Source: Acholoe squamosa (Eukaryota; Annelida; Polychaeta; Phyllodocida; Polynoidae). From it: a DNA stretch of 64,000 nt. Location of the stretch: the NCBI GenBank assembly GCA_949317995.1, contig OX439036.1:7792356-7856355 (forward strand), read 5' to 3'. Position 1 is the first letter of the stretch. Each line of letters opens with the position of its first letter. The notes under the pieces are model-generated. The model made no database searches and had not been told where the DNA came from. It saw nothing but the letters and a program-made list of their open reading frames with translations. The position numbers and the translations under genes are program-made. Shown here in pieces: positions 1-27,411 of this stretch.

Positions 1-2
1 AC

Positions 3-353
3 GCTGATTACTGGAGAGACAGAATCGGATCAGCAGTTTCTAGGTGGAGAGCAGCCTATGAAAACGGTGTAGGCAGGGTTTCCAATAACGACTCTGGACA
101 CCCGGTAGGAGACAATCCAAACTTCTCACTCAACATTAATAGACTATTGGACGAGTGGCTCGACCCTACCGTTACCCAGCCAAACCGATACCAATCCACT
201 TCTGAAGAGGAGGACCTGTACCCCCCACCTGTGTACACACCTACACAGCCACTTAGAACCAGGTCAGTGGACTCACCACCAAGACAAGGCTCTAGATTTA
301 GAAGGAGGGCCCAATCAAGTTCACCTCTTAGAAGAAGAACCCCCACTGGTTAA
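3..353 (+). CDS. Unrecognised ORF upstream of gag, 5' end outside the window
   Basis: The frame beginning at base 3 is open from the left edge to TAA at 351-353, at least 116 codons, so the start lies outside the window. I do not recognise the protein. Its C-terminal half is rich in Pro, Ser and Arg, with an acidic EEED run, then PPVY (bases 225-236), which fits the PPxY late-domain motif that retroviral Gag proteins use to recruit NEDD4-type ligases, and an Arg-rich end. After the TAA the same frame stays open to 557 and overlaps the start of gag, which is in the -1 frame relative to it. It may be a separate protein ahead of gag, as in plant Ogre elements, or the matrix-like N-terminus of Gag cut off by a stop and a frame change. 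The LTR-element context is clear; the role is inference. Confidence 0.55.
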   Translation, partial: ADYWRDRIGSAVSRWRAAYENGVGRVSNNDSGHPVGDNPNFSLNINRLLDEWLDPTVTQPNRYQSTSEEEDLYPPPVYTPTQPLRTRSVDSPPRQGSRFRRRAQSSSPLRRRTPTG

Positions 354-508
354 AGACTACTGAGAAGTGTGGACGGAGCTACAAGCAGGTCTCACCTCGT
401 AGCTACAACCCCGCTACTCAACAGAGGCAATAGGACGCCTTACAACTCACCTCTGCTCATCAATTCACCTGGAGAAGATACTGAAGTGACCTTGCCCGCC
501 GACCCAAC

Positions 509-2371
509 ATGGCAATGTCCAGAGGTCACCCCCCTCAGTATGACCAGGAGGACATGAGAAGAAGTCTTGTCAGAGACTGTACAAGCGCCGTCAGCGAATC
601 TCTCTCTGAGCTACTGGCCAAGCACGTGGGCACCCTATCCACTGAGATTAAAAATCATGGACAGGAACACTCAGACCAATTGGCCAGAGTACACCTCAGG
701 TTAGATGACATGGAACGTTGGAAGGAGCATATGGAAAGCAACACCGCCCACAATTTCAGGCAGGCAGAGCAGAGCAATATGGAAGTTCTCAGAAGATCCG
801 AGGATTTCACATATCAAATGACTGACCAGCTCAGCAAAAATATGGACTCAATGAGGCTTGACCTGATGAGAGCCATTCAAAACCATTCGAACGGCGCCGA
901 CGCCACCAACTCCAACCAAACCGCCACCAGCGCCCAAGGTAATTCAGGGCAGGTACAATCCACTCCTCCTTACCCCACGGCACCTGACTACAGTACCAGC
1001 CACAATGACATGACAGGAGCAGGTATGAGCCCACCACATGCCTTCAAAGACAATCAATACACAGCATCACATGCACTGCACCAATCTCCTACAAATGGTG
1101 CACCGAACACCCACCAGGGGGCGACAACGCCTTGTAACACAGCGCCTAATCCAAACCAACACGGTGGCCATGTGGTTAATGGTGTTTACAGTCCCCAAGG
1201 ACAAACAAGCAACCACTCTGGACTACCATATCCTCCTAGGTATGATCATATAGCACACTCCACACCGGTAGTGCACCAGGGAGGATACCATGGCGCTGAG
1301 TATACCAGATTTCCCCCTAGTAGAATTGACAGCGACAAGCTCACATCTGCCCAGCTAGGATCATTCAATAAACCTGAACCCTTTGACAAGCCAACGCCCT
1401 ACAGGTCTGCAGCAAAATTTCTGACTGAATTTAAATTCTTCATAAGGAATGTGCACGCCAAGAGGCCCGACCTACATGCAACTTGCCTGTACACCTTTCT
1501 CAAAGGAAGGGCAGCTCAGTGGTTTTTCAGCAATATAATGGACAAGCCCATCATGCAAAACAATGACGCCGTCTATGATGCTTTCTTGGCGAGGTTTGGC
1601 ACTCCCGACCTCAGCACCATCCTCAAAGGATATAGAGCCAGGAAACAAAAGCCAAACGAAACCACTGAGGACTACCTAGCAGACATGACCATGTTGTTGT
1701 CCAACAGCAGCCTGGACGAGGCCTCACAAGTGGACTACCTTGTAAATGGCCTCAGACCCGAGCTGAAAAATGTTGTTGTAGCCAAATCTCCCAAGACCTT
1801 GCTGGAAGCTGAACAATTGGCCATAAATCAAGAACTAAATCTCGAGGCCATAAAAATTACTCAGAACAGCTCAGCAGAGTTATGTGCTGTAGGCTACAAC
1901 AAGAACGACGACAGATCCAGAAAGGATAAATATCAGCGAGACCACAAGAAAGAAGACAGACTGCCCAGTAGTAATTACAACAAACAGTATGAAAATAAAT
2001 TCAAAAACAGCTACAGAGGAAGGTCCAAATCTTCAGACAGATCCAATCCTAAGGACTACAGATCTAATTCCAAAAATAGATCCGACTATAAGTCCTCAGG
2101 AAGAGATAGGTCAAAAGATAGATCAGAGCAAAGATCAAGATCCTCTGATAGCAACAAAAGTTTCGTCTTCATACCAGTTGCTGGACAGCCAAACAACAAT
2201 AAAAACGTCTCCTTCATGGTCCCAGCTGACTTCACCATCCCAGACAATTGGGTACAACAGTCATTAAAGAAGTCCAGAGATCCAACCCCAGGCAGGAATT
2301 ACTCCAGGAGCCATTCAGGATCTCAGTCTGAGGCAGACAATGACAGCCCCAACAACACACAAGATGAATAG
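509..2371 (+). CDS. gag: Gag polyprotein of a Ty3/gypsy-type element
   Basis: Structural protein of 620 residues; the ATG at 509 has A at -3 and G at +4. Residues 8-11 are PPQY, a PPxY late-domain motif. Residues about 20-125 look like a coiled coil, 125-275 are a low-complexity Gln/Asn/His/Pro/Thr linker, and about 285-445 match the retrotransposon gag capsid fold (aromatic-rich helices with the AAQWF and YLVNGLRPEL stretches). The tail, about 465-550, is dense in Arg, Ser, Lys and Asp, with repeated RS and RD pairs. No CCHC zinc knuckle is present: the few cysteines are scattered. The Arg/Ser tail presumably binds RNA instead, by analogy with spumavirus Gag (inference). The frame ends at UAG 2369-2371, and the same frame continues open into the protease. 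Confidence 0.9.
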   Translation: MAMSRGHPPQYDQEDMRRSLVRDCTSAVSESLSELLAKHVGTLSTEIKNHGQEHSDQLARVHLRLDDMERWKEHMESNTAHNFRQAEQSNMEVLRRSEDFTYQMTDQLSKNMDSMRLDLMRAIQNHSNGADATNSNQTATSAQGNSGQVQSTPPYPTAPDYSTSHNDMTGAGMSPPHAFKDNQYTASHALHQSPTNGAPNTHQGATTPCNTAPNPNQHGGHVVNGVYSPQGQTSNHSGLPYPPRYDHIAHSTPVVHQGGYHGAEYTRFPPSRIDSDKLTSAQLGSFNKPEPFDKPTPYRSAAKFLTEFKFFIRNVHAKRPDLHATCLYTFLKGRAAQWFFSNIMDKPIMQNNDAVYDAFLARFGTPDLSTILKGYRARKQKPNETTEDYLADMTMLLSNSSLDEASQVDYLVNGLRPELKNVVVAKSPKTLLEAEQLAINQELNLEAIKITQNSSAELCAVGYNKNDDRSRKDKYQRDHKKEDRLPSSNYNKQYENKFKNSYRGRSKSSDRSNPKDYRSNSKNRSDYKSSGRDRSKDRSEQRSRSSDSNKSFVFIPVAGQPNNNKNVSFMVPADFTIPDNWVQQSLKKSRDPTPGRNYSRSHSGSQSEADNDSPNNTQDE

Positions 2372-2440
2372 GGATCAGGGGAAGGCACTCAAGCACCTAG
2401 TGACCCCGACCCCAACCGGACCACGACCATCGAATTATCC
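2369..2440 (+). promoter_or_regulatory. Candidate UAG readthrough signal between gag and protease
   Basis: Gag ends in UAG followed directly by GGATCAGGGGAAGG. The frame after the stop is open for 33 codons to the first ATG (2471) and on through the protease. A single in-frame UAG with a G/A-rich 3' context between gag and pro is the arrangement of gammaretroviruses, where a downstream pseudoknot drives suppression. Here GGGG at about 2378-2381 could pair with CCCC near 2403-2413, but I could not fold the region. A point mutation creating the stop is the alternative. Confidence 0.45.
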
Positions 2441-3073
2441 AAGGACACTTCTCGAGATGCTGATGCACAAATGAATTCAGTAGACTCCCAATCATCCAGT
2501 TCGGATTATACCAACTTCTTGAACACCAATGAAACTTCAGACTCCAGTGATGACGAGGATGAGTACGAGGACCAGAGCCAAAGGACCTCAATCCTGAAAC
2601 TGAGGATCAAATCTGAGCAGTATGGGCAGCAAGGTAAGGCCATTTACGTTGATACAGAATTAACCAAAGGTGCAGTCTCTGTAGACATAAATAACCACTT
2701 GTATAGAGCTCTTGTTGACTCAGGCGCCTCACTTTCTTTTATTAGCCAAAAAATGGCTGACAAAATCGCGAACACACCAAATTTTAGACACGGTAGACGC
2801 GCGCGACTGACAGTTTTATTGGCTGATAAAACCCCCATCCAAGTAAATCACTCCATGACTGTAACTTTCCTGATTGGTGGCCATGAATTCAGATCCAGAT
2901 TCCATGTGGTACCTGAACTGAACCATCCCCTAATCTTAGGAGTAAATTTCATGACCAAATACAAAGCCAAAATTTCCTTTGGACCAACTCCCCCATCGCC
3001 CAATTACATCAGGGCAAACAAAAATGTTTATATTCCACCAAACATAGCAACATTGTGGGAAAAACTGGATTGA
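2372..3073 (+). CDS. pro: Aspartic protease domain (pro), in frame with gag
   Basis: Retroviral-type aspartic protease that would cut the Gag and Pol polyproteins. The frame runs from directly after the gag UAG to TGA 3071-3073; its first ATG is at 2471. The catalytic motif is DSGA, with the Asp codon at 2717-2719, preceded by ALV and followed by a beta-rich region ending in ILGVNF (about 2933-2950), equivalent to the family's ILG flap-closing strand. The first part (2372-2620) is acidic and Ser/Asp-rich and probably a linker. Expression would need readthrough of the UAG, since ATG 2471 lies far inside a genomic transcript. The end overlaps pol, which is in the -1 frame. Confidence 0.88.
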   Translation, partial: GSGEGTQAPSDPDPNRTTTIELSKDTSRDADAQMNSVDSQSSSSDYTNFLNTNETSDSSDDEDEYEDQSQRTSILKLRIKSEQYGQQGKAIYVDTELTKGAVSVDINNHLYRALVDSGASLSFISQKMADKIANTPNFRHGRRARLTVLLADKTPIQVNHSMTVTFLIGGHEFRSRFHVVPELNHPLILGVNFMTKYKAKISFGPTPPSPNYIRANKNVYIPPNIATLWEKLD

Positions 3074-6000
3074 CTGAGAACTCAGGTTCTACCCTACCGG
3101 TACTTATTAAGTGCGCCATAGTTAAACCTAGATCAGACCTTAAGATAGTACCAGTAACGGTAGCTAACCCAAACGACTTCCCCATCAAGATAAAAAGACA
3201 CATGAACCTCGGTGTATTTAAACTTTTCAATATCAAAAAGGCCATACCCATTGGTGCACTCAATGGCGCCCATTCACTCAACAGTGTAACAACAGAAAAG
3301 GACTTATTCCCAATCAATTGTGGAGAGGATCCTATGGACCAACTCCCCAAAGGGAACGAACCTTTGAAGTACAAAATCTGTGAAAAACTCTCTGAAATTC
3401 AAAGACAACAGATCAAAAACATTGTTGAGGCCAATAGGCAAGCCTTTGTCCTAAATGAAAGCGCCATAGGTCTCAATGTAGAAAATGAAGTCAAGCTGGA
3501 ATTAAAGCCAGACTTCAAACCCTGCAACAGACCGTCGTATAGGATGTCCCCTCACAAAGAAATTTTTCAAAGGGAACTCCTGAAAAAACATTTAGAACAG
3601 GGGATAATAGAAGAGTGTACCAAACCCTGTGAGTGGAACTCACCCGCCTTTTTAGTGCCAAAACCACAAGGTGACAGGTCAGTAGCCTCTGGTTGGAGAA
3701 TTGTAGTTGACTACAGATGGGTAAATGAGAATTTAAAAACTTTCTCTTACTCATTCCCCAGAGCTGACGACCTCATGCAGCAGATAGGCAGAACGGGCGC
3801 CAAGTATTTTTCCAAATTGGATGTCTACAACGCCTACCACCAGATTCCCCTAGCAGAAGAATCTAGGCCACTTACCACCTTCTCTGCCAATGGCACGAGA
3901 TACATGGCAAAAGTTCTCCCTATGGGACTCAAAACTTCAGGCCTATCCTTCATGAATGTAATGGAGCAACTTCTCATGAAATGCAAGTATAAGAATGCTG
4001 TAGCATATGTAGATGATGTAGCCATTTACAGCCCCACGTGGGAAAGGCACTTACAAGATCTAGACGAGGTTTTAAAACTTTTTATCAGAGGTAACATCAA
4101 ACTGAAATCAGAAAAGTGCGAATTTGGAACTACCAAAATGGAATTTTTGGGTTTCAATGTAGACCAGCATGGCTTGTCACCATCCCCGGACAAAATAGGA
4201 CCTGTCAAAACTTTCCCCCCACCCAGAAACATCCATGATCTTAGATGTTTCAATGGTATGGCGCAGTTTTACAAAAGGTTCATCAGAGGTTTTGCTCATG
4301 TCATGAAGCCCCTTTATGAGGCGACAAAAAGCACCTTCAAATGGACCACTGAGTGTCAGAGAGCCTTTGAGAAAATTAAAACTGCTATCTGTACTGAAGC
4401 TGTGCTGAAATTCCCGGACTATAATAGACCTTTTGTCATTTTTACTGACTCGAGCAACTACAGCCTAGGAGCTGTTATCACTCAAGTAGACGACTACGGT
4501 TTCTATAGACCGATTGAATTTGCAGGGAGAGGCTTGACACCTCAAGAGTCTAGGTATGGGATAACTGACAAAGAACTGTTAGGAATAGTTTTTGCAGTCA
4601 AAAAGTTCCACCATTATGTGGATGGAACTCACTTCAAAGTATACTCGGACCACACCGCCCTGGTTTCCCTTTTCAACAAAAAGGAAAACATAACCAATGG
4701 AAGGTTAGCCAGGTGGGTCGACACAGTCATGTCCTACGACTTTGAAGTCAGATACCTGCAAGGCAGAGCTAATATTGTGGCAGACTTCCTTTCCAGAAGG
4801 AAATACCCGCCCAGCTCTGATGACCCAATTCCCATCAGGTCTCAAGGTAGAATAATACTCCCTCCTAAATCAGTCAGATTCTCCGACATTACCATGACCA
4901 AAGTCTTCAAATTAAACGACCCAATTCCCAAAAATCCAGTCCTCATGGGACCACCTAGGTCCATACTAAAAGGAGGACAGATTTGGGGTAGCACTTCCAA
5001 GAAGCCAAAGGGTGTGATTGCCAAGAAAGGTAGCTCTGAAAGAGAAAAACTCAGCTCCAATCAAACTGTGCCTGAGCTGTGCATTCTAACTCGATCTAAA
5101 GCCAAGCTACCAAACCCAGTCACACCCCCTCAGCCCAGCAAATCAACCAGAAGTAAACAGACCCGCCCCCCTAAGGTCAAGGACACCAAGACCAAATCAA
5201 GGGGCAGACCACCTAAATCTAGGTCACCCAGAGTATCAGTGAAATTAGCTAATACCAGAAGGGCTAAGTTATCACACAAAGTGCTACCCATGGCTGAACT
5301 AGCGATAAGCCAGCTATGCAAACACCACTCCCTAACACCATCCAGGGAGACACTGATACAGGCGCAGCACGAGGATGTTTTCTCAAACTCCATGCTGTCA
5401 TACATCAATAAGGGTGAATTACCAGAGGACCCAAGCCTTAGTAAACAGATACTGCTAAACCATGACCAGTTCATGATTTTAGACGAAGTTTTATTCAGAA
5501 TCACCAAATCAACCTATGGAGACAGTTTGGAGCCTACACTACAAATAGTGATGCCAGAAAAATGGGCAGAATCGCTAATTGAGGCCACACACTGCTCACC
5601 ATTAGGAGGACACCTTGGTCTTACTAAAACGTACGCAGCAATCAGATCCAGGTATTATTGGCGCTCCATGTTCAAACATGTTTTTGACTACTGTGGCACT
5701 TGCCACACATGTCTCACAACAAAGAAAAGACCAAAACACCTGAGAACCCCAATGACCCTGAGAGACCCTGTTTTAACAGCCTACACTCACCTCACCATGG
5801 ACACCATCGGTCCTTTCACACCTGCTGTGGATGGATCCTCATTTATCCATGTTGTCACAGATCATGCTACCAGGCACATCACTGTTTGGTCCACAAAAGA
5901 TAACACCAGCGCCGAAGTAGCGCTAGGATTTTTCCAAAGGGTTATCTGTGTTTTTGGAACCCCGTCAGTCCTGAACACAGATAACGCAAAACAGTATGTG

Positions 6001-6480
6001 TCCAAATATTTCACATCTTTTTGTGATAAATTCGGCATCAAACATGTGACAGGGAGTGCACATTGGTCAAAATCACAAGGTCTATGTGAGCGTCAACATC
6101 AAACAATAGAATCTTCACTCAGAGCCTTTGTCTCCAAATCACAGAAACATTGGTCAACCTTCCTACAGGCTATAGCTTTCAGCATAAACAACGCCGTATG
6201 CAGCGTGTTAGGATACTCACCCAATCTTTTGGTGTTTGGAAAGCAAACACATCTCCCAACTGAGTCCTCCCTGTCATTGGTCAAACAAACTGAAGAGATC
6301 AAAGACAGGGAAAAATTGGTCACCGCCTTACTCAGCTTAAGAGATGACATCCAACTTAAGGCAGCTGAGAGCATGGTCAAACACCATAAAAAGATGAAAG
6401 CCAGATTTGACGCCACTGCTTCCCCATGCACCTACAACACAGGCCAGCTTGTGTACTTCACATACCTAACCTGTTGGTAA
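3055..6480 (+). CDS. pol: Pol: reverse transcriptase, RNase H and integrase
   Basis: Replication polyprotein; numbering is from 3055, which is a GTG, so this is not a real start: the frame is open from 2917 and is probably entered by frameshift. The RT lies at about 170-345, with YVDD at 318-321 (4006-4017) and the upstream FSKLDVYNAYHQI block. RNase H follows, with D465, E507, D532 and D577. A long basic, Pro-rich spacer (about 586-780) carries RGRP at 716-719, an AT-hook core. The integrase has an HHCC finger (H846, H853, C883, C886) and the catalytic triad D916, D976, E1012, i.e. D-x59-D-x35-E. The domain order RT-RH-IN and the FLGFNVDQHGL region place it in Ty3/gypsy (Metaviridae). The frame stops at TAA 6478-6480, before the integrase C-terminal domain is complete. 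Confidence 0.96.
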   Translation: MGKTGLTENSGSTLPVLIKCAIVKPRSDLKIVPVTVANPNDFPIKIKRHMNLGVFKLFNIKKAIPIGALNGAHSLNSVTTEKDLFPINCGEDPMDQLPKGNEPLKYKICEKLSEIQRQQIKNIVEANRQAFVLNESAIGLNVENEVKLELKPDFKPCNRPSYRMSPHKEIFQRELLKKHLEQGIIEECTKPCEWNSPAFLVPKPQGDRSVASGWRIVVDYRWVNENLKTFSYSFPRADDLMQQIGRTGAKYFSKLDVYNAYHQIPLAEESRPLTTFSANGTRYMAKVLPMGLKTSGLSFMNVMEQLLMKCKYKNAVAYVDDVAIYSPTWERHLQDLDEVLKLFIRGNIKLKSEKCEFGTTKMEFLGFNVDQHGLSPSPDKIGPVKTFPPPRNIHDLRCFNGMAQFYKRFIRGFAHVMKPLYEATKSTFKWTTECQRAFEKIKTAICTEAVLKFPDYNRPFVIFTDSSNYSLGAVITQVDDYGFYRPIEFAGRGLTPQESRYGITDKELLGIVFAVKKFHHYVDGTHFKVYSDHTALVSLFNKKENITNGRLARWVDTVMSYDFEVRYLQGRANIVADFLSRRKYPPSSDDPIPIRSQGRIILPPKSVRFSDITMTKVFKLNDPIPKNPVLMGPPRSILKGGQIWGSTSKKPKGVIAKKGSSEREKLSSNQTVPELCILTRSKAKLPNPVTPPQPSKSTRSKQTRPPKVKDTKTKSRGRPPKSRSPRVSVKLANTRRAKLSHKVLPMAELAISQLCKHHSLTPSRETLIQAQHEDVFSNSMLSYINKGELPEDPSLSKQILLNHDQFMILDEVLFRITKSTYGDSLEPTLQIVMPEKWAESLIEATHCSPLGGHLGLTKTYAAIRSRYYWRSMFKHVFDYCGTCHTCLTTKKRPKHLRTPMTLRDPVLTAYTHLTMDTIGPFTPAVDGSSFIHVVTDHATRHITVWSTKDNTSAEVALGFFQRVICVFGTPSVLNTDNAKQYVSKYFTSFCDKFGIKHVTGSAHWSKSQGLCERQHQTIESSLRAFVSKSQKHWSTFLQAIAFSINNAVCSVLGYSPNLLVFGKQTHLPTESSLSLVKQTEEIKDREKLVTALLSLRDDIQLKAAESMVKHHKKMKARFDATASPCTYNTGQLVYFTYLTCW
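3056..3073 (+). other. Protease-pol frame junction (-1)
   Basis: Protease is in the frame of bases 2 mod 3, pol in 1 mod 3, so pol must be reached by a -1 shift. The protease frame reads conserved-looking residues up to about 3045 and pol-like residues begin near 3085, so the natural shift point is probably in the GGGAAAAAC run (3057-3065), where A-site slippage on AAA is possible but no perfectly phased X XXY YYZ heptamer exists. A phased AAATTTC heptamer does exist at 2944-2950 but would cut the protease short. A one-base mutation is also possible. Confidence 0.4.
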
Positions 6481-6839
6481 AACAAACGAGCAAAAATCTG
6501 CAGCCCACCTATAGTGGACCATACATCATAATGAAAATGACTTCACCAGCAACTGCAAAATTAAAAAGGCTCCAAGACGGTAAAGTATTAAAGAAATCAA
6601 TACATGTATCCAGATTAAGGAGACCAATCACCAAGGCTAGTGCCAAGGCTGTGATCAAAAGACTGCAGTCTGGGCCAATCAACACCTTGTATGACCCTGA
6701 TCTGGATTCCACCCATATTGGTGAACCAGAATCCCCCGCAGTCAAAAAGAAAAGAGGACGACCTGCAAAGAAAGGACTTGTCACCTTTGCCCCTTCCCCA
6801 AAGAAGAAAACAAAGAAAAAGTCCACGAAAAAGAAATAG
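6426..6839 (+). CDS. Integrase C-terminal domain in a shifted frame, with AT-hook tail
   Basis: The integrase reading frame ends prematurely at 6480, while this frame (0 mod 3) continues with a stretch of the kind that follows QLVYF in Ty3/gypsy integrases: an SH3-like piece with YSGPYII, then VSRLRRP. So the C-terminal domain is split by a frame change between about 6450 and 6475, equal to loss of one base or a -1 shift. The last part is very basic, with RGRP (6753-6764, an AT-hook core) and KKK-rich runs ending at TAG 6837-6839; this would suit chromatin tethering or nuclear import. Probably a disabling indel in this copy; programmed recoding is less likely this far from a domain boundary. 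The ATG at 6426 is unlikely to be used. Confidence 0.7.
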   Translation: MHLQHRPACVLHIPNLLVKQTSKNLQPTYSGPYIIMKMTSPATAKLKRLQDGKVLKKSIHVSRLRRPITKASAKAVIKRLQSGPINTLYDPDLDSTHIGEPESPAVKKKRGRPAKKGLVTFAPSPKKKTKKKSTKKK

Positions 6840-7737
6840 ATTTTCAGAAAACACGCAATTTTTTTTTTCCCTCCTTTTTCACCCCACAACACCCACCACA
6901 ACCCCCCCCACATTTATACATACCCCTCTACCTTCACCCAAACCGGTGGCAATTTTGGCCACGTGTTATTTCATGCAGTGATGTTTTTCCCCCCACAATT
7001 TTTTTTTATTTCATCTTATTATCCAAACCGCATACCAACTACCTTCAACGTCACAATTTCTACACAATACCCCAAAAGCCTTCTGGCTTACTTCTACTGA
7101 TGGGACATTGTCAAGAATTTTATCTAGGATTTGAGACTCAGACAGTCATATAATGATTGATTAAGGTTGGCACGCCACATAAATTACCCAAGGTCACAGC
7201 CTATTCTTGGTTCGTGAATCCTAATTTTAGGAACACGCATGCGCCGGTTTGTTACAAGCTCAGGGCTCCTCTATACCTTAAAGTATTACCACCTATTGTA
7301 GGAGAGCAGCACCTAGACATCCTGATCCGTGTTTATGCCCCTGTTTACCATCGGTACTGGAATGTTTGGTGAGACACTTAATCAAATAATTCAGCACAGT
7401 TCCCTGCTGTGTTATCATAACAGGAACAAGTGCACCCCCACAAGCTGACTAATCTCAGCTCCACAACCATCAACCCCCCCATTATAACTACAATATTCAG
7501 ATCACCCAATGATCATCCGCGCCCCCCTAGAAGGCCCATCAAATTTGCATATCACAATGTACAAGTGTATGCAAACCAACCAATAGCTAGGCCCCGTGCC
7601 ATATATGGGTGAGACATACCTCATCGGGAGGCAGGTAATGAGGAATTAGCCAACCTCATGAAATGCTTATAAGCCTCACACCACCCCCATCTTATCCACT
7701 TCCAAAACAATAACCAAACTCACCACATCCAGCCACC
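6840..7737 (+). other. Noncoding stretch between pol and the accessory/env region
   Basis: No convincing coding sequence. It starts with T-rich and C-rich tracts (about 6858-6915), possible splice-acceptor material, and contains two short open frames (7157-7372 and 7430-7612) without good starts. A possible acceptor (ATAACAG, ending 7423) and a GTGAGA donor-like site at 7608 could frame a small extra exon, but nothing else supports it. The right third holds the promoter-like block listed separately. Confidence 0.5.
7580..7673 (+). promoter_or_regulatory. Candidate internal promoter (CCAAT, CArG box, TATA)
   Basis: CCAAT at 7580-7584, a perfect CC(A/T)6GG CArG box at 7599-7608 (CCATATATGG, the serum response factor site), and TTATAA inside CTTATAAG at 7666-7673. 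A start about 25-30 bases after the TATA (near 7700) would leave a leader of roughly 40 bases before the strong ATG at 7738. Spumaviruses are known to have an internal promoter for accessory genes; that this is one is inference from motifs and spacing. Confidence 0.4.
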
Positions 7738-7799
7738 ATGGAGCAAGCATCCGGAGACCACAGGACCCAAGTGTCGGGACTGCCATGCAACAAGCCCAG
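7738..7799 (+). CDS. Short shared first coding exon with splice donor
   Basis: The ATG at 7738 sits in CCACCATGG, a full Kozak match. The frame is open for 20 codons plus two bases (AG) and then meets CCCAG|GTAGGA, a good splice donor with GT at 7800-7801. The peptide is short and polar and looks like a leader rather than a domain. The two leftover bases need one base from the next exon. The acceptors ending at 8097, 8960 and 12,991 each open an exon whose long frame needs exactly two preceding bases, so this exon could supply the start codon to the 8098 accessory frame, env and the 3' accessory frame. Env has no ATG ahead of its signal peptide, which makes such an exon necessary. The protein products are inferred; no RNA evidence is available here. 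Confidence 0.6.
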
Positions 7800-8097
7800 G
7801 TAGGATCGGTCTTATGTGTCCATTAGTAGCGTCATCAATCGTTCTAGCATGACAATGATGGAATCTACCATCATGTTGCCCAGATACCCATTACATGCCA
7901 ATGGTAGTGTGCGCCCAGAGTGCTTTGTAAAATGCAATAGTTGAATTTGCAGTCCTTTTTCAAAACCATGTATGGCAGTCTGACTTTTCACAACCTTATT
8001 TATCAACCTCTTGACAAAACCCCCCACCAGCCCATTCATCTATCTTAGTCTAACAACGAACCTACCAAATTTTTTTTTCTCTCATTATTCACAACAG
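7800..8097 (+). other. Short intron (7800-8097), nested in longer alternative introns
   Basis: The donor is GTAGGA at 7800. The first acceptor is an uninterrupted T/C tract (8069-8093) ending in CAACAG at 8097. The same donor could pair with the acceptor ending at 8960 (CTATTTTTAG) or at 12,991 (CTCTTCCCTACAG). No coding sequence seen inside. Confidence 0.5.
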
Positions 8098-8683
8098 CCT
8101 TAGAGCCCCAGAGATTAGACATGGAGCCAACTCAGGGTGGACCATCCACAGTCTTTTAGGCCCAAACGGCATCAAAAGTAAGGCCATGGATCTGTTCGAG
8201 ATCAGAATAACTATTATGGAGCACAAAGACATGATCAAACGTATATCCAGCGACGACTTAGGTGTATACCTAAACAACAAAACAGTTCAAAAAGAGCTCA
8301 CCCTACAAGACCCAATTGTATTGTCGGCCACCAAGGCCATGATATTCGATCTATGCAAAGATTTCCCCACAGTCCCATTGTGGGACAGATTCAGTGAGGA
8401 AACATCAAGCTATATAGCACTCCTATGTGCCAGGACTATGATTACCACAGAGAAACCACTTAAAGAGCTACCAAGATATGAAACAGGTATCGGCAGATAC
8501 AATGTCATTATCCAATCAACAAAGCGTTTGAGATGGCTAGATACTCCCACTTATACAGTTAAACCTATCAACCCTGAATTGACCCATTCTACCCCCCCCC
8601 CCTTTACACATTTACGACGTGAAAAATCAATTACTCCCCTTCAATTCATTTCCCCTTTCAATTCTCACGACCTTTTTACATGA
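8098..8683 (+). CDS. Unrecognised accessory protein exon
   Basis: The frame is open from the acceptor at 8097/8098 to TGA 8681-8683; the first internal ATG is at 8186. Joined in phase to the 7738 exon it would give about 215 residues. I do not recognise it: no signal peptide or membrane segment, helical and moderately charged in the middle, with a Pro/Thr run near the end (around 8590-8605). The frame is closed by TAA (8051-8053) just upstream of the acceptor tract. It sits where complex retroviruses keep regulatory genes, between pol and env, and could be regulatory, but nothing in the sequence proves it. Initiation at ATG 8186 without splicing is the alternative. Confidence 0.5.
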
Positions 8684-8960
8684 CTAAGATGGAGACATCC
8701 TGCTAGTTAAGGCATCAGCCTAGCAAACTGATAACCTTTTAAACAAACACGTCCAAAAGCGCCACATTCACACTACACTTAACCAAGAACACACCCAAAC
8801 ACATATAGGACGACCACCGCCCAATCTACACAAACATACCTCACACAAAGCCAACCCCCCCCCAACCCACCCTTAGAACACCCAACTCACCCCAGACAAC
8901 AGTCCTATCTCAGTCTCTATGATCAATCTCTCACAAGCTTATCTAAATTTCTATTTTTAG
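8684..8960 (+). other. Spacer before env, ending in a splice acceptor
   Basis: C- and A-rich noncoding sequence. It ends in TCTATTTTTAG at 8960, directly before the env frame, which is closed by an in-frame TAA at 8944-8946 just upstream. That stop plus the acceptor indicates that env is read from a spliced RNA. Confidence 0.55.
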
Positions 8961-11667
8961 GACAGCAGCCTCCTTGGCAGCACTCCTCCTAATTTTGTGC
9001 GCCCAGACCCACCAGTCAGGAGCACAGGATTTTGTAACCAATGAAAAAACCATCTTCAGGCCAAACTATGGTGTTTTATTCACTAAAATACCCCAGAAAA
9101 TGATCTCAGGATATATGGATTACCCATTAGTTTTCACTTTAGACCTATCCTTCAATCAATCCTTGCAGCGACCGGACAAATTAACCTCCCTAATCAGCAA
9201 AAATGCCCCAAACTTTATCTTGGAAACCGCCCAAACTTTAGACCTAATTTTGGCAAATCTCTACCAAAAATCTCAAAAATCTTTAGCCCTATTAATAAAA
9301 TTTTTGGAACATCCCCAAACTAGGTCACCCAGAGGCGCCCCAGGACAAATCATAGGTGATATTTTAAGAGCATCAATTGGCTTGAGCACGCAACCTGAAG
9401 TAGACTTGTTGAATTCCGAAATGTCCGACTTAGAGAAAACTCTAGCCACCAAAATGCACGTGGTAGAATTAGCCACACATTTTCTCTTGAACATTTCTGA
9501 ATTTCATTATCAATCTTTGAGTATTTTCTCCAGCATGCAGAATGATACGGACGACGCCCTGGCTCTGCTCAGCTCCAACCTCCAACTGTTGACTAAGAAT
9601 GTATCAAACATCTTATTCAACCTGGAACAACAGAGCAGACAGGACACCTATCATTCGATGTTATTTACCGCTGCTAACTCTCAAATTGAAGCGCTAATGA
9701 ATCTGCAAAATGATTTAGACACCCTACTGGACTCACTAACCACTCTAATGGAAGGCGAGCTACCTCCAAAATTAATTCCACATAAAGTCATGGAAGATGG
9801 ACTTAATAATCTATCAAGCTCCTTGTATGAATCCAACAATGGTATCAAAATTCTAAACGTACCCACCGGTTTCTACTACCAAAGGAGAGTGCATGTGCAC
9901 TGGCATGACCAAAACAAACTTTACATCACGGTGCCTATACCCATAGGACTGGGAGACAATATCTACTCCATATATAGAGCGGAGGCCTTCCCAGTCCCAT
10001 TTGATACCACCAATGTAAACACTACTGGGTTTACACGAGTACAGCCATTGCCTAATTATATAGCCATGTCTGCGTCCCAGTCACACTACATTGAACTGGA
10101 TCACTCTGACTTAGATCTCTGTGATGTAAATGTTTTCATAACATGCAACCTGCCCCTGCCCATGTTATCTCCTAGGCACCCCACCTGCAGCTTATCCTTA
10201 TTTTTAGACCTACCTAACGCTGTACATAACACCTGCAATTTTCGGGTCCACATGACAGCACAAATTCCCAACATTGCTAAGCCCATCTCCCAGAGCTCCT
10301 ACTTGCTCATCACTAGCTTTCCACCTTCAATAATGCAATGCTCAAACTCAGGCCAAATTGAGATAAAAAATGCAGCCTACTCTATTATTTCAGTACCATG
10401 CCTCTGCTCACTTAAAAACAGAGGCATGATAATGATTAATTCAGACCTGTCCTGCGCCCAAAACTTTACTTTAGAACCTATCGCCAAAGTGCCCTTCAAC
10501 TTACCTCTATGGCAGCATTTTGGTAACCCGCCAAACAACATATCAGGAGTAACCATAGCAACCACTCCGACCCACCTAGACCTACCAAATTTTCAGCGCC
10601 TAAAGCGCCTTCACAACCAAAAATTCCTACCCCTATTCAAGGACATTTTAGACTTAAAAGGCGCTGCCACCAAAATTCATGACAAATCATCCATCCTGAG
10701 CACCAACTCACTCATACATCTAGGATATCACCTGGAGTTTTCCCCTTGGTTACACCTGTTGTCGCCAGCCATCGCCATCTTGTGCTGCCTGATCACGTGT
10801 CGCATACACATGCGCGTGGTATACTTAGCCCAATTAGTGACCATTCACAGTCGAGCAACGATGGCTGACGCAGCATCTTGGAATAAGCTTAAAGAGATGA
10901 TCAAAAATACCAACCAAAATTGGCCCACACGGACCACACCCCAGGAGATCACTACACCTGACTGGATTCAGATGCCAGGAAGGTATGATTCCATGATTGC
11001 CTTCCTAGGCATCATCCTCAGCCTGTTATTCATCAAGGCGGCGGGAAGATGCTGTCTTAGGCATTGGCCCTACGGCAGACAGGACCCCGCCCCCGGAACA
11101 CCAAGATTCGTGCTGAAGGTACACTCTGGAGGGCACACATATGCCTTTCCAGTGGGATTAATGGTGTATGGAAGGAACCTTTGGCCAGCATCCATCTTGT
11201 CACCCAAACTAGCACCACCCAGGTTAACTTTCCCCCTAGCCCGTAATCTTGATGCGCATTGGAAGTCGGACGTCGGAATGATCATTGGTGGAAGACTAAG
11301 GACGGTGAGGCTGGAGAGATACCCCAGTTGCCCTTTGCTCTGGCGGATCCCCCTCACAATCATCCTCAGATCGAGACCCCACACGGTCACCCTGGCCATT
11401 GTACAGGAAAACCAGCCCGATTTCCAACTCACACCAAGTGAATATGAACTGTCAGCCAGCTGCAAACCAGTGCCACCTCTGACACGGAGAAAAGACCTAA
11501 GCAGGCGGGAAGCCCCTAAAGCCTCCACCAGTGGGACAACTCTGGCAGAGATGGCCCTGCTACAACTCAGGGAAACCCAACCACCCAAGGATCTATACCT
11601 ATTCGACCCTACACTGGCTGAGAGGGCCATTAACACCATAGATGGTAGGTTTTCTTTAAAACTTTAA
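8961..11667 (+). CDS. env: Envelope glycoprotein, F-type (errantivirus/baculovirus F) like
   Basis: About 900 residues; numbering from the TTG at 8974. The exon opens with a hydrophobic signal peptide (1-18) that has no in-frame ATG ahead of it (the first is at 9100, residue 43), so the start must come from an upstream exon. RSPR at 117-120 is a furin-like site followed by a Gly/Ala-rich, fusion-peptide-like segment; 140-260 is a heptad-rich coiled coil; VPIPIG and FPVPF blocks near 320-345 resemble the IPxP region of F proteins; Cys-rich pairs follow. A transmembrane segment lies at about 590-611. Unusually, a second hydrophobic segment (671-690) and a further tail of about 207 residues follow. 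Family errantivirus Env proteins are usually much shorter. No frame break is seen. Assignment to the F-type fold rests on motif order, not on alignment. Confidence 0.8.
11642..11650 (+). other. Candidate splice donor near the end of env
   Basis: ATG|GTAGGT, with GT at 11,645-11,646, lies eight codons before the env stop. It leaves one base of a codon. Joined to the acceptor at 12,991/12,992 it would put the reader in the 1 mod 3 frame, which is open to TAA at 13,204-13,206, giving Env an alternative, longer polar C-terminus. Motif-level evidence only. Confidence 0.3.
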
Positions 11668-12022
11668 ACCATTAGTTTCGGCTGATGTGGGGATCGTTGG
11701 GTACGCTCAGCGTCCTCATCGACCTCCACCGGCCACCCCCCGAGGTTCCTCCCATAATGGACTGTCCCCAGCGCCCACAGGCCCGGTGACAACACTGGAC
11801 GGTACCACCACCCTTATGTGGGGATGGCAGGTGCTGAACAGCGCTACATAGCAGACCGGATAGCCCTGAGACGCTGATGTGGGGATCCCCCTCCTATCCG
11901 GCGAGATCCCCCCGAGACCCCCCAAGGACCCCCCCATAGGGCCCCCATCCCAACCATACATAACCATACCCACAAATCGCAATATCCCGCCATTGCTTCA
12001 CTTTGCACATCACTGGATCTTA
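11668..12022 (+). other. Noncoding region after env
   Basis: C-rich sequence with no good frame. GCTGATGTGGGGATC occurs twice, at 11,681-11,695 and 11,873-11,887, and ATTAGTTTCGG at 11,671 recurs near 12,147, so parts were duplicated. No promoter or RNA structure recognised. Confidence 0.5.
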
Positions 12023-12842
12023 TCAATGACGACGCAAGGCCGTTCCACAAACCACAAACGCAGTCATAACGTCTGCACCAAATTTTCGCGCCAGTCGCGA
12101 CCCGGCGTCGCCATTTTTAAAGAGCTTCGTGATATGCAAATGTCCATTAGTTTCGGTCACATGATCGTCGTGACTCGATACATAGACTGAAAACAACAAC
12201 ATCAACACGTGCAAACAACCTAGCTTCATGATAAAAGGGATTACTTACGTCTTTCCTAAAAGCCGTTCACTGCCGGCACCTGAGGCGCCAGCAGTAGGTA
12301 GGTGACCTGATGTATCCTACAAAAACAAATCCAAAATTGAAATTACCAAAAAGCCCGTAACAAATTCCTGATTCAAAATTTTCCAAAACAAATTCACCCA
12401 ACCACCAATTCAGAATTACTTACGTCCCGTCCTCGTTGATGAACACTGTGATCAACAGGGCGCGACCGTCCGGGAAATGGAGAACGCCTTGGACGATCTC
12501 CATCTTGCGTAACTACTGATAAGATAGCCGGCACCCATATCTTATATAGGACCAAGGCTATAGGCATCAAAACTCAAAATTTATTTCAAATCCGCGACCC
12601 CCACCCTCAAATTCAGTTAACATACCGTATAACAGAATGCCACAACTCGAAATTTTCCAAGACCTTTTTCAACCACCTTCATAAAACTTTAGGCCACTAT
12701 TCGAAATATTTTTCAGGATTTTTATCTGAATAATCAGGTTCAGCACGGTGAAGCGACAGCTCGGTACCGCCACCCAGTGTGATACAAATTAACCAACTAA
12801 GCTTGCTTAGTTACACTTACCGCTTTCTATTCTTGCAATCAT
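12023..12842 (-). CDS. Candidate spliced antisense gene inside the element
   Basis: On the minus strand three strong donors (GTAAGT or GTAAGTAA) and three acceptors define exons ending at 12,821; 12,515-12,424; 12,316-12,249; and from 12,186 down. Introns would be 305, 107 and 62 bases. Two readings cross them. From ATG 12,503 (aagATGG) the frame stays in phase through three exons to TGA 12,023-12,025, 103 codons, but has a TAG at codon 47, seven bases before the second donor. From ATG 12,842 in the first exon, four exons read without a stop to TAA at 12,147-12,149, about 73 residues, Arg/Ser/Gly/Pro-rich. The first reading looks more protein-like; the second is unbroken. Neither is recognised. 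The position between env and the 3' end recalls antisense genes of deltaretroviruses (analogy only). Confidence 0.42.
12541..12548 (-). promoter_or_regulatory. TATA-like box upstream of the antisense ATG 12,503
   Basis: On the minus strand TATATAAG lies 38 bases before the ATG at 12,503. It could start a short-leader antisense RNA inside what would otherwise be the first antisense intron. Motif and spacing only. Confidence 0.3.
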
Positions 12843-12991
12843 ATTGAGCTCTGTCAAGTTAATATTATGTGTCAAACAGCTGAAATTCATAGCACCTATT
12901 GGTTATCCTGTATTGACAAGGCCACCAGCTGACCCAAGCAGGATTTCACACCTCTGTTAATGGTTTGTTTTCACGGCTCTCTTCCCTACAG

Positions 12992-13691
12992 ACCCCTCCT
13001 CTGGAGACCTGGCAGCCCTACCATCCGTCGGCCCTCCAGCCCTGGAGAAAGACGAGCCGGGGCTATCATCGTCAAGGAAGGCGACAGGAAGAAGAAGCAG
13101 CATGGAAGAGGTCAAGCCAAATCCAACCCCACCAGCCGCGGACCCCGAGCCCCAGCAGCAACTTCCACCAGCCAGTGGAGGGAGCCAGCTAGGAAGCCCC
13201 ATCTAACACCCAGGGGAACCTATGTGTCGGCAGCTTGTAGGCCTGGGACACCCATGCCCCCAACCTACAGGCACGCCAATAATTACTGCCGCCACATCAA
13301 TGGACAGGTATCCGCTGCCAAACTCTGTATACCGTGTTACCATCAGCCAAATGGGTTCCTGTGCCCTTGCGCTTATGACAATAAACCTAAGCCAGGCGGC
13401 AACAGGCAACAGTTCCCACCCAGAACCATGTGGAAGCCCATGCCAGCTCGACCTAGCCCCACCACAGAGACAGACACAACCTCAGAGGACGGATCAGATG
13501 TGGCCACTGCTGGTGACTTAGCATCAGTATACCTAGACTTTTCGGACATTACCATCTCAAAATTCAGACCCATCAGATCCAGGAACCATCGTAAAGCTGA
13601 AGGCAGGTTTAAGAACTTCAACATCAAAGAACACCAAAACCTACCTCCAAATAGCATACACCCTAATCGACATTTCAGAACACACAAATAG
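12992..13691 (+). CDS. Cys-rich, basic 3' accessory exon
   Basis: The acceptor CTCTTCCCTACAG ends at 12,991; the 0 mod 3 frame then runs to TAG 13,689-13,691, about 233 residues after the acceptor. The frame also holds an ATG at 12,960 ahead of the acceptor, usable only in unspliced RNA. The exon needs two bases from the preceding exon, which matches the donor at 7799. The N-terminal part is Pro/Arg/Lys-rich with a KKK-containing basic patch; the middle has six cysteines and several His in a pattern including CIPC and CPC, suggestive of metal binding; the C-terminal third is acidic then basic. Not recognised. A basic plus Cys-rich small protein near the 3' end would suit a regulatory factor, but this is inference. 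All three frames are open between 12,994 and about 13,190. Confidence 0.5.
12994..13206 (+). CDS. Overlapping alternative frame, possible alternative Env tail
   Basis: The 1 mod 3 frame is open from the acceptor to TAA 13,204-13,206, about 70 codons, Pro/Ser/Glu-rich and without membrane segments. It is the frame entered if the donor at 11,645 is joined here. The third frame is also open, to 13,192. High GC can keep frames open by chance, so this is weakly supported. Confidence 0.25.
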   Translation, partial: PSSGDLAALPSVGPPALEKDEPGLSSSRKATGRRSSMEEVKPNPTPPAADPEPQQQLPPASGGSQLGSPI

Positions 13692-14544
13692 ACATTTCAC
13701 AGAATCAATTCTTGTACTACCCAACCATTGAGATACGATTGTAAACAACCCCCGTGCCTATACGTATCATTTGTTTTCTGTGAATGTAAAAGTTTTTTTT
13801 TTTTTTTTCTCTACCAAGTATGTCAAATCCTTTTCACTGGATTCTTCAAAAAGCCTGTTCTGTTTAGGCCAAATGTATATATTAGCTTAAGATTTCTCTC
13901 CTTTGATGAACATTATGAGACTAAAAACCAAAATGGCCTCCTGGTTTAACTCTAGGCGCTATAAAGTTCATCACCTTTACCATTGTTTTTCAAGCTCAAC
14001 CATGAAATGTATTTATGAGTTTTAGTCACCCCATTCATTTACCCCTTTCATATATATTTGATGAATATTTTGCGTCCCTGTTATACACTACTCCACCTTA
14101 ATTTTCACCTTGTAACTAACTTTGCAAGATAAACTTGGTAGTGTGGAGCCAAAAATTCATCACCCTTATGCTGATCTTTGACCCCACAGTACCAAGAATT
14201 ACCGACCCCAGTTAATTCTCACATGGACAAGTTCTGGCATATCAATGCGCCAAACAGAACTTGCCACCAGACCAAGAAAATTCCCATCTTTTCAAAATAA
14301 CAGGCATACGCACACATTATAAGCATATAACATGTAACCTTTATAACCTGTACATAGATTAAGTCACTTGATCCACGCGAACCGTATTCTTGTAAACCCA
14401 GAAAGAAGCGTTTTTATTATACCGCATGTTATGTAAACTCGTCAGATTTTCACAAAAACCTTGTATATGTACCATAATACCCATAATTGTCAATGGACTT
14501 GGCAAAGCCTTATTTTTCTGCTTATTTTTCTCCCTTTACACTCG
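13692..14544 (+). other. 3' noncoding region before the LTR
   Basis: AT-rich sequence without a convincing frame. It contains a T-run (13,793-13,808) and an inverted match between about 14,475-14,490 (ATAATACCCATAAT) and GGGTATTATAATT inside the LTR near 14,590. No gene seen. Confidence 0.55.
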
Positions 14545-14572
14545 TGCAGAGACGAGTAGGAATGTGGGGATT
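14545..14572 (+). other. Polypurine tract for plus-strand priming
   Basis: A purine-rich run with GAGACGAGTAGGAATGTGGGGA ending at 14,570, then TT and the LTR start TGTCAATGG. Location directly before the LTR and the G-run at its end are as expected for a polypurine tract, though it has several pyrimidine interruptions. Confidence 0.5.
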
Positions 14573-14968
14573 TGTCAATGGACCATTCTGGGTATTATAA
14601 TTATTTTTCATATTTACTAAATTCTTCGCCATATAAAAACCTGAGCTCTGCCCATGATCTACACTCAATAACATCCTGCATTCCCCAACAGGAACCAGGA
14701 CCCATTACTCACCACAAACACACTTCCTCGATGACACTCTGTGACATAAGGCACAAGGATGTAATAACATTCCAACCTTATCTACGCATACACAGTGTAA
14801 CTGGAGGAAGTGCGATCCACCTGTGGTGCCATATTTGGAATGGGAGAATATTTCACAATCTCCTCTCAATCCTCATCAACATGACTAACACACAGGTGGC
14901 AATCTCTCCCTATGACACGTGTCCCTATTTCATTGAGCCACGTGTATAGAATATTTCACAACACTGTG

Positions 14969-15009
14969 AGCTGCTCAAGTCTTTTATATAAAAGGCAGCT
15001 TGAGCAGCT
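14969..15009 (+). promoter_or_regulatory. LTR core promoter with TATA box in a hairpin
   Basis: TATATAAA at 14,985-14,992 sits in the self-complementary CTTTTATATAAAAG (14,981-14,994). It is flanked by 11-bp inverted arms AGCTGCTCAAG (14,969-14,979) and CTTGAGCAGCT (14,999-15,009). Transcription would start near 15,015-15,020, just past the right arm. Confidence 0.65.
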
Positions 15010-15151
15010 TCCAGTCATCTCTCCCAACTTACACCTTACACCTATACCTAGAATCTATGACAGGTTGAGCTATAGGATCAGAGGCAGAGCTTAGATCTTG
15101 GCGAGTGTTATCATTGTTACCACCTTTATGAAACACTCATGTCAGCTATGC

Positions 15152-15157
15152 AATAAA
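15152..15157 (+). terminator. LTR polyadenylation signal AATAAA
   Basis: AATAAA followed after about 20 bases by a GT-containing stretch (CCGTGTAC, 15,184-15,191). Order TATA then AATAAA inside one LTR supports a normal U3-R-U5 layout. Confidence 0.65.
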
Positions 15158-15291
15158 AGGATCAACTGAACTTCCCTGGATTCCGTGTACATTCACTTCA
15201 CCACATGTAACCGTCCGTTGACAATATGCTATAGAAGGGTGGGAAACTAAAGCGAACAGTGCTGCCCTCTGGTGCCTTTATTTGCTATGCA

Positions 15292-15792: not shown

Positions 15793-17307
15793 CGCAGCAT
15801 TCAGGATGATGCACTCTGACTTCGCCCAGTAGTGATATAAAGACGAATATAGCAATCAGCCAAAATATCCCACAAGAGAAAGATTAGTTTCTTTCCCCTT
15901 GTTGAGGGGCTCACTTCAAGGGACACTGATGCAGGAGTGCATCGTGCCAGGTGATCATGATGCACTAATGAAGTACAGGAGTGCATCGTGCAAGGTCATC
16001 ATGATGCACTAATGAAGTGTAGGAGTGCATCATGCCAGGTCATCATGATGCACTAATGAAGTGTAGCGTGCATCATGCCAGGTCATCATGATGCACTAAT
16101 GAAGTGTAGGAGTGCATCGTGCCAGGTCATCATGATGCACTAATGAAGTGTAGGAGTGCATCGTGCCAGGTCATCATGAGGCACTAATGAAGTGTAGGAG
16201 TGCATCGTGCCAGGTCATCATGATGCACTAATGAAGTGTAGGAGTGCATCGTGCCCGGTCATCATGATGCACTAATGAAGTGCAGGAGTGCATCGTGCCA
16301 GGTCATCATGATGCACTAATGAAGTGTAGGAGTGCATCGTGCCAGGTCATCATGATGCACTAATGAAGTGTAGGAGTGCATCGTGCCAGGTCATCATGAT
16401 GCACTAATGAAGTGTAGGAGTGCATCGTGCCAGGTCATTATGATGCACTAATGAAGTGCAGGAGTGCATCGTGCCAGGTCATCATGATGTACTAATGAAG
16501 TGCAGGAGTGCATCGTGCCAGGTCATCATGATGCACTAATGAAGTGCAGGAGTGCATCGTGCCAGGTCATCATGATGCACTAATGAAGTGCAGGAGTGCA
16601 TCGTGCCAGGTCATCATGATGCACTAATGAAGTGCAGGAGTGCAACGTGCCAGGTCATCATGATGCACTAATGAAGTGCAGGAGTGCATCGTGCCAGGTC
16701 ATCATGATGCACTAATGAAGTGTAGGAGTGCATCGTGCCAGGTCATCATGATGCACTAATGAAGTGTAGGAGTGCATCGTGCCAGGTCATCATGATGCAC
16801 TAATGAAGTGTAGGAGTGCATCGTGCCAGGTCATCATGATGCACTAATGAAGTGCATCCAGGTCTGCTCTGGAGCACTTCATGGGAGCACCATGCCGACC
16901 CCATGCCGACGCAGCATTCAGGATGATGCACTCTGACTTCGCCCAGTAGTGATATAAAGACGAATATAGCAATCAGCCAAAATATCCCACAAGAGAAAGA
17001 TTAGTTTCTTTCCCATTGTTGAGGGGCTCACTTCAAGGGACATCGTGCATCGTGCCAGGTCATCATGATACACTTATGAAGTGTAGGAGTACATTGTGCC
17101 AGGTCATCATGATGCACTAATGAAGTGCAGGAGTGCATCATGCCAGGTCATCATGATGCACTAATGAAGTGTAGGAGTGCATCGTGCCAGGTCATCATGA
17201 TGCACTAATGAAGTGTAGGAGTGCATCGTGCCAGGTCATCATGATGCACTAATGAAGTGCATCCAGGTCTGCTCTGGAGCACTTCATGGGAGCACCATGC
17301 CGACCCC
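15793..17307. repeat. 44-bp satellite in two blocks with duplicated flanks
   Basis: About 21 copies of a 44-bp unit (15,931-16,854) and five more (17,041-17,260). Each unit contains AGTGCATCGTG and CATGATGCACT, an 11-bp inverted pair with one mismatch around a 9-base loop. Each block is preceded by the same 133-bp sequence (15,793-15,925 and 16,910-17,042) and followed by the same 49-bp sequence (16,854-16,902 and 17,259-17,307). So the whole cassette was duplicated and the arrays then changed length. No CRISPR character: there are no unique spacers. The 133-bp flank has a GATATAAAG TATA-like word. Confidence 0.9.
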
Positions 17308-26988: not shown

Positions 26989-27009
26989 TCACGACACAAT
27001 ATGGTCAGG

Positions 27010-27378: not shown

Positions 27379-27411
27379 ACAGATCTATTTGAGGTTAAAC
27401 CAGGAGCATGT

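What the first reader, a model, noticed from the sequence alone, without database searches (positions are those of the whole stretch)
1..15223. A giant env-bearing Ty3/gypsy element built like a complex retrovirus
Seen: gag, protease, RT, RNase H, DD35E integrase, env and a 3' LTR in one orientation over more than 15.2 kb, with about 3 kb of extra coding-like sequence (upstream ORF, 8098 exon, 3' Cys-rich exon, antisense exons). Known: most gypsy elements with env are 7-9 kb and carry only gag, pol and env. Inference: an unusual lineage with regulatory accessory genes acquired independently of vertebrate complex retroviruses.
Basis: partly seen in the sequence, partly recalled or inferred. Interest (0 to 1): 0.9.

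Follow-up and report, generated by a model that had tools for sequence, protein, structure and literature searches.

The report
Large env-bearing gypsy element, two extra genes
This is a young, 16.5-kilobase virus-like jumping gene with an envelope gene; its family also keeps two small extra genes that look preserved by natural selection, so its layout resembles a complex retrovirus, although what the extra genes do is unknown.

Summary
The window holds the 3' 15.2 kb of a 16,511-bp Ty3/gypsy provirus; its 5' LTR lies just left of base 1, 99.4% identical to the 3' LTR, with ATAT target duplications. Gag, protease, RT, RNase H, DD35E integrase and an uninterrupted baculovirus-F-type Env are present; this copy's gag and pol are broken. 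Two capped lists each show 39 other copies with the regions called accessory.

Two of four 'accessory' claims hold. A 131-aa ORF between pol and env is intact in 34 of 38 mapped copies (39 examined; shared-variant pN/pS 0.23, P 0.017). A 145-aa Cys-rich ORF after env is intact in 42 of 49 (pN/pS 0.19, P 1e-6). Two fail: the 'upstream ORF' is the N-terminal part of a roughly 985-aa Gag, and antisense ORFs are near chance length. Extra coding is about 0.9 kb, not 3 kb.

Best reading: an errantivirus-like metavirus with spliced env and accessory mRNAs (inferred); the Cys-rich protein is plausibly a nuclear regulator, like CERV of Cer1. Function untested. New variant of a known kind.

The parts
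3..353 (+).
   Evidence: 6 of 9 mapped copies read through it into gag in one open frame; 1 of 9 is open to the end of its piece; 2 of 9 are interrupted; a tenth piece did not map
485..2371 (+). Main gag ORF (628 aa, Ty3 capsid-like), ending in TAG; protease follows in the same frame
2372..3073 (+). Protease ORF (DSGA)
2917..6480 (+). RT, RNase H, integrase zinc and DD35E core; homology to relatives starts at about 3043-3061
6456..6839 (+). Integrase C-terminus, in another frame in this copy
   Evidence: 29 of 29 other copies have a longer open frame over this piece; shared pN/pS 0.16
7664..7675 (+). TATA-like sequence, possible internal promoter (speculative)
   Evidence: identical in 29 of 29 copies, which were chosen for similarity over 7700-8700
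7738..7799 (+). Proposed leader exon: ATG in a Kozak-like setting, donor CAG|GTAGGA
   Evidence: 62 nt, ATG and GT kept in 29 of 29 copies; donor 5th of 569 GT sites; in phase with the acceptors at 8098, 8961, 12992 and 13241
8186..8683 (+). Accessory ORF 1: 131 aa in the family; this copy lacks 19 nt at about 8522 and so reads 165 codons
8961..11667 (+). Env exon: F-type envelope with an R-x-x-R site, two hydrophobic stretches and a long tail
   Evidence: Baculo_F; PDB 'fusion protein' 9w4d E 0.003; acceptor 2nd of 994 AG sites; shared pN/pS 0.06 over 8962-10179; features
12992..13206 (+). First part of the 3' exon; strongest acceptor of the element; a 70-codon frame reachable from a donor at the end of env (11644), significance of that frame not shown
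   Evidence: acceptor 1st of 994; AG kept in 47 of 49 copies; frame selection P 0.11
13254..13691 (+). Accessory ORF 2: 145-aa protein, Cys/His-rich N-terminus and basic C-terminus
   Evidence: intact in 42 of 49 copies; shared variants 12 N: 25 S over 13209-13691, pN/pS 0.19, P 1e-6
14573..15223 (+). 3' LTR (651 bp); the 5' LTR is outside the window at L012:1713-2362
15224..15227 (.). Right copy of the ATAT target site duplication

Best explanation
This is one recently inserted, now defective copy of a multicopy, env-bearing Ty3/gypsy (Metaviridae, errantivirus-like) provirus family. Shown: LTRs, target duplication, gag-pol-env order, an F-type Env, and two extra small ORFs that recur in other copies and carry the mark of purifying selection (strong for the 145-aa ORF, modest for the 131-aa ORF). 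Inferred: full-length RNA makes a roughly 985-aa Gag and Pol; a short leader exon (7738-7799) is spliced to the acceptor at 8961 and supplies Env's start codon; other spliced RNAs make the 131-aa protein and, through the acceptor at 12992 or 13241, the 145-aa Cys-rich protein. Most likely (about 0.35) the Cys-rich, basic-tailed protein acts in the nucleus on the element's own RNA, helping expression or export of the intron-containing genomic RNA. The role of the 131-aa protein is open; a helper of Gag or Env, or an antagonist of host defence, are guesses.
For: Domains and order; LTR pair and ATAT duplication; 39 other copies in each capped list over both regions; ORF 1 intact in 34 of 38 mapped copies, shared 4 N: 7 S, P 0.017; ORF 2 intact in 42 of 49, shared 12 N: 25 S, P 1e-6, 25 of 37 at third positions; positive controls env 0.06 and integrase C-terminus 0.16, untranslated stretches 0.75-2.1; the two best acceptors of 994 sit at env and at the 3' exon, exon-1 donor 5th of 569; phases agree; Cys 12, 28, 37, 39 and His 7, 14, 30 unchanged in 45 indel-free copies, Cys 25 changed in 1. 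Precedent for a spliced regulator in a Ty3/gypsy element: CERV of Cer1.
Against: No RNA or protein data. Neither small protein matches anything known (Pfam; PDB, best E 0.7-1.5; protein search for ORF 1). The ORF 1 signal rests on 11 shared variants, all of them already seen among 7 of the copies, and 29 close copies alone showed none. The acceptor at 8098 is weak (177th of 994). Copies L015-L043 and L045-L073 were chosen by similarity to the very regions tested. Low indel density is not confined to ORF 2: 0.36 per kb just upstream and 0.33 in part of the LTR. Negative stretches sometimes gave low P by chance (LTR singletons P 0.003; intron singletons P 0.03).
Confidence: 0.7

Rival explanations
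1. The small ORFs are modules of Env or Gag products (an alternative spliced Env tail, or a leader peptide) rather than separate accessory genes.
For: A good donor lies at the end of env (11644, 6th of 569; GT kept in 28 of 28 mapped copies) and joins 12992 in a frame that stays open for 70 codons, with a coding-like codon score (z 2.5). Exon 1 is in phase with Env and with both ORFs.
Against: The env-donor frame ends at 13206, before the constrained 145-aa frame, and its own selection signal is not significant (10 N: 9 S shared, P 0.11). ORF 2 has its own ATG, kept in 48 of 49 copies.
Confidence: 0.13
2. An ordinary env-bearing gypsy element whose extra ORFs are captured or leftover sequence without function; the conservation reflects recent common descent of the copies.
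For: Copies are close to each other (95-98% and 98-100% in the capped lists) and were in part picked by similarity; no homologues or known domains.
Against: Common descent does not favour third-position changes in one frame: ORF 2 pN/pS 0.19 against 2.65 and 1.93 in the other frames, close to the integrase and env controls and unlike untranslated stretches.
Confidence: 0.12
3. The ORFs are genes captured from the host in this lineage, for a host-directed use (for example against host defence), not regulators of the element's RNA.
For: [quoted passage not shown]
Against: No Pfam match for either protein; I did not search the host genome for donor genes.
Confidence: 0.25

Closest known systems
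Errantiviruses / env-bearing gypsy elements of insects and other animals
   Same: Ty3/gypsy pol, Baculo_F-type Env with an R-x-x-R site, 4-bp target duplication, Gag without a CCHC knuckle in the part read. Env-bearing gypsy elements are stated to be widespread in animals outside insects (PMC13172572 passages).
   Different: 16.5 kb; roughly 985-aa Gag; 131-aa and 145-aa extra ORFs; long Env tail.
Cer1 of Caenorhabditis elegans (Ty3/gypsy) with CERV
   Same: [quoted passage not shown] CERV is needed for export of unspliced genomic RNA (PMC10309623, abstract and passages).
   Different: Cer1 has no clear Env and has CCHC knuckles in Gag (same passages); the window element has an F-type Env and two small ORFs. 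Sequence relation to CERV was not tested.
Burro of planarians
   Same: Giant gypsy-like element with Env homology and extra domains (PMC6431247 passages).
   Different: Burro exceeds 30 kb and has its env and extra domains inside one large ORF between gag and pol; here env is a separate 3' gene.
Complex retroviruses of vertebrates (recalled)
   Same: Env plus small ORFs between pol and env and after env, probably from alternatively spliced RNAs; a possible internal promoter recalls foamy viruses.
   Different: Pol is Ty3/gypsy and Env is F-type; no sequence relation of the small ORFs to known regulators was found, and no function was tested.

Membership tests
Ty3/gypsy (Metaviridae) | PR-RT-RNase H-IN order with Ty3/gypsy-type domains | tested here: met
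   nearest proteins are gypsy-type Gag-Pol
Ty3/gypsy (Metaviridae) | LTR pair with TG...CA ends and 4-6 bp target duplication | tested here: met
Errantivirus-like env-bearing gypsy | Baculovirus-F-type Env downstream of pol | tested here: met
   Baculo_F E 2.2e-10; PDB fusion protein E 0.003
Errantivirus (genus) | Placement of RT within the named errantivirus clade | tested here: inconclusive
   113-row tree groups the window with unnamed P0001-P0007; no named errantivirus reference was in it
Complex retrovirus-like expression | Accessory ORFs under purifying selection, recurring in other copies | tested here: met
   ORF 2 strong; ORF 1 modest
Complex retrovirus-like expression | Alternatively spliced accessory mRNAs | not tested
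   splice sites and phases only; no RNA data
Complex retrovirus-like expression | Accessory protein that regulates viral RNA | not testable with these tools
   structure prediction was off; no homologue found
Troyka | CG...CG ends, 3-bp duplication, no Env (PMC12440569, parts 1-2 of 5 read) | tested here: not met
   TG...CA ends, ATAT duplication, Env present

The most novel reading that the evidence does not exclude
An errantivirus-like metavirus lineage has independently evolved a complex-retrovirus strategy: one shared leader exon feeds alternatively spliced Env, a 131-aa accessory protein and a Cys-rich nuclear regulator of its own unspliced RNA, possibly from an internal promoter.
Probability: 0.3. 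Interest if true: 0.82.

Novelty: new variant of a known kind. Interest (0 to 1): 0.6.

Why it matters
Regulatory accessory genes are usually discussed for vertebrate retroviruses (recalled), with CERV of Cer1 a Ty3/gypsy case (PMC10309623). An F-type env-bearing metavirus with two selected extra genes, between pol and env and after env, would make it testable whether accessory genes arise repeatedly once an LTR element becomes infectious and splices its RNA. One genome holds many copies (526, 617 and 1358 first-look candidates for three queries, fragments probably included), so much can be learned by comparison alone.

Tried and rejected
Rejected readings. (1) Upstream ORF as an accessory gene: it is Gag N-terminus. 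(2) Antisense exons: two of three stretches have ordinary minus-strand lengths; the third (23 of 500 shuffles) is antisense to Gag coding sequence. (3) Troyka: ends, duplication and Env differ. (4) Exon 1 joined to 12992 as one long Cys-rich protein: the part before 13254 shows no constraint in that frame (ratios 0.96 and 1.79), and the long frame is intact in 37 of 49 copies against 42 of 49 for the ORF from ATG 13254. (5) The LTR ORF 14560-14949: codon score below shuffles (z -1.3).

Led nowhere: viral-contig scans with Env, pol and the pol alignment (no relative); the genome-contig scan (3 distant loci, 29-31%, all in one MAG, not used further); protein search with Env (none of 8000 scored) and with ORF 1; Pfam and PDB for both small proteins; Rfam and tRNA scans of the window (none); the first selection test of ORF 1 on 29 close copies (one shared variant). 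In one search two rows were given in the wrong phase (ORF8098 core, env post TM); I read them from the column of the right frame. Planned but did not complete: the 145-aa protein, P0006 and LTR searches of the own genome.

Limits of the counts. L015-L043 were listed by similarity to 7700-8700 and L045-L073 by similarity to 12950-13720, so conservation there is biased upward. L084-L103 (from the 14000-14400 list) and L104-L113 (ORF 1 pieces of ten of those copies) are less biased. L083 and L108 did not map and were dropped. The ORF 1 N/S count used only the 34 intact copies. The env control used 26 of 29 copies. Eight of 121 rows were left out of the tree for short alignments.
Full report
What is there. 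Window 1-15223 is the 3' 92% of one LTR provirus. Pfam finds a Ty3 capsid-like Gag and an integrase C-terminal SH3-like module (both below their curated cut-offs), and aspartyl protease, RT, RNase H, integrase zinc and core domains and a Baculo_F Env above theirs, all on the + strand. Integrase spacing is D-35-E; YVDD and DSGA are present. The first bases of the element lie left of the window. In the held own genome (1.48 Gb, 63 contigs, unnamed) I fetched 3 kb to the left: a 650-bp LTR matches the window's 651-bp 3' LTR at 99.4% (3 substitutions, 1 indel). ATAT stands on both outer sides. The element is therefore 16,511 bp and young.

State of this copy. Relatives P0001, P0002, P0004, P0005 and P0006 carry protease to integrase C-terminus in one ORF (P0003 too, as far as its truncated integrase), whereas the window needs three frames. 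All 29 other copies examined have a longer open frame over the integrase C-terminal piece (149-227 aa, 24 of 29 at 202 or more, against 142 aa in the window). A stop and a frame change also break the N-terminal part of its Gag. Env is uninterrupted. I describe the breaks only.

The upstream ORF. Ten pieces of other copies were fetched over the leader. By arithmetic (379 plus 606 codons, from different pieces) Gag is about 985 aa. This is not an accessory gene.

Accessory ORF 1. The list for 7700-8700 is capped at 40 and holds the window and 39 other copies at 95-98%. In 29 of 29 fetched other copies exon 1 is 62 nt with ATG and donor GT; the env acceptor AG is kept in 28 of 29. From ATG 8186 the frame is 131 aa in 27 of those 29. 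The window copy lacks 19 nt present in all 29. Adding ten pieces from less biased copies gave 34 of 38 mapped copies with the 131-aa ORF (39 examined, L108 unmapped). Variants shared by at least two of the 34 intact copies were 4 nonsynonymous and 7 synonymous (ratio 0.23, P 0.017); the other frames gave 0.92 and 3.4, and singletons were neutral at 1.16. All 11 shared variants are already seen among the 7 intact less biased copies. With the 29 close copies alone there was a single shared variant.

Accessory ORF 2. The list for 12950-13720, also capped at 40, holds the window and 39 other copies at 98-100%. In 49 other copies the 145-aa ORF from ATG 13254 is intact in 42. Over 13209-13691 shared variants are 12 N and 25 S in its frame (ratio 0.19, P 1e-6), with 25 of 37 at third positions; the other two frames give 2.65 and 1.93. 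Indels there are 0.00 per kb per copy, against 4.94 and 8.76 in the next two bins, but 0.36 just upstream and 0.33 in part of the LTR (a set chosen by similarity in this region), so indel scarcity alone is weak evidence. Cys 12, 28, 37 and 39 and His 7, 14 and 30 are unchanged in 45 indel-free copies, and Cys 25 is changed in one. Upstream, 12993-13253, no frame shows significant constraint among shared variants; the 70-codon frame reached from the env donor has 10 N: 9 S (P 0.11).

Controls. The same method gives 0.06 for env 8962-10179 (26 copies, P 1e-12), 0.16 for the integrase C-terminus (29 copies, P 4e-5), and 0.75-2.1 for untranslated stretches after env and before the LTR (28 and 29 copies). 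One LTR frame gave a singleton P of 0.003 and one intron frame 0.03 among many tests, so single P values near 0.01, including that for ORF 1, should be read with care.

Splicing. With generic recalled splice weights, the two best of 994 AG sites in the element are 12992 and 8961, at the 3' exon and at env; the exon-1 donor is 5th of 569 GT sites and a donor at the end of env is 6th. The AG before 12992 is kept in 47 of 49 copies. Env's signal-peptide-like start directly follows its acceptor, and exon 1 supplies an in-frame ATG; exon 1 is also in phase with ORF 1 (through 8098, a weak acceptor, 177th) and with ORF 2 (through 12992 or 13241). Three matching phases have a chance of 1 in 27, so this is supportive only. 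A TATA-like box about 70 nt upstream of exon 1 is identical in 29 of 29 copies, but those were chosen for similarity close by. No RNA was seen.

Place among relatives. The nearest proteins (P0001-P0008, 39-69% identical, unnamed) group with the window: in a 113-row RT/RNase H tree the window and P0001-P0007 form a set with SH-aLRT 100, apart from the named plant and insect rows. No named errantivirus was in it. The own genome holds other F-type env genes: 72 matches to PF12259 (0 of 14 control genomes), with recurrent open-frame lengths of 664, 713 and 727 aa. Only 191 first-look candidates were taken, and the window's own env is not among the matches listed.

Literature. Held library only, eight answered searches. 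[quoted passage not shown] Cer1 carries CERV, a spliced regulator of genomic RNA export (PMC10309623, abstract and passages). Env-bearing gypsy elements are stated to be widespread in animals (PMC13172572, passages; the primary paper, Chary and Hayashi 2025, is not held). In these searches I saw no description of an F-type env-bearing gypsy element with two selected extra ORFs; that is no proof that none is in print.

Verdict. The size and anatomy claim is right and understated in length. The accessory claim is right for two of the ORFs, strongly for the 145-aa one and modestly for the 131-aa one, and wrong for the upstream ORF and the antisense exons. The regulatory, complex-retrovirus reading is a fair hypothesis, not a result.

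Noticed in passing
15933-17259: A 44-bp tandem repeat array (about 30 copies) stands some 700 bases right of the element.
   Followed up: no
42160-43083: A 308-aa open frame with a hydrophobic stretch and a Thr-rich run may be a host gene exon; no PDB match at E 0.1.
   Followed up: partly
2369-2374: Gag and protease are separated by an in-frame TAG followed by GGA, which recalls readthrough suppression in some retroviruses (recalled); could equally be a mutation of this copy.
   Followed up: partly
485-2371 and 3-353: Gag has no CCHC knuckle but PPxY (PPQY, PPRY; PPVY in the N-terminal part) and PTAP strings like retroviral late-budding motifs (names recalled; strings).
   Followed up: no
G000, PF12259 matches: The genome holds several other F-type env families by open-frame length (664, 713, 727 aa) and one match in a 1783-aa open frame (C18:51740368-51741504).
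   Followed up: no
L095 and L096 (G000:C3:34633691-34634591 and 34639406-34640306): Two copies in opposite orientation a few kb apart share a changed 12992 acceptor (AC), suggesting an inverted duplication of one insertion.
   Followed up: no
27004-27763: A 760-bp stretch matches its own reverse complement at 84% (an inverted repeat), with related copies near 27890 and 50218.
   Followed up: no
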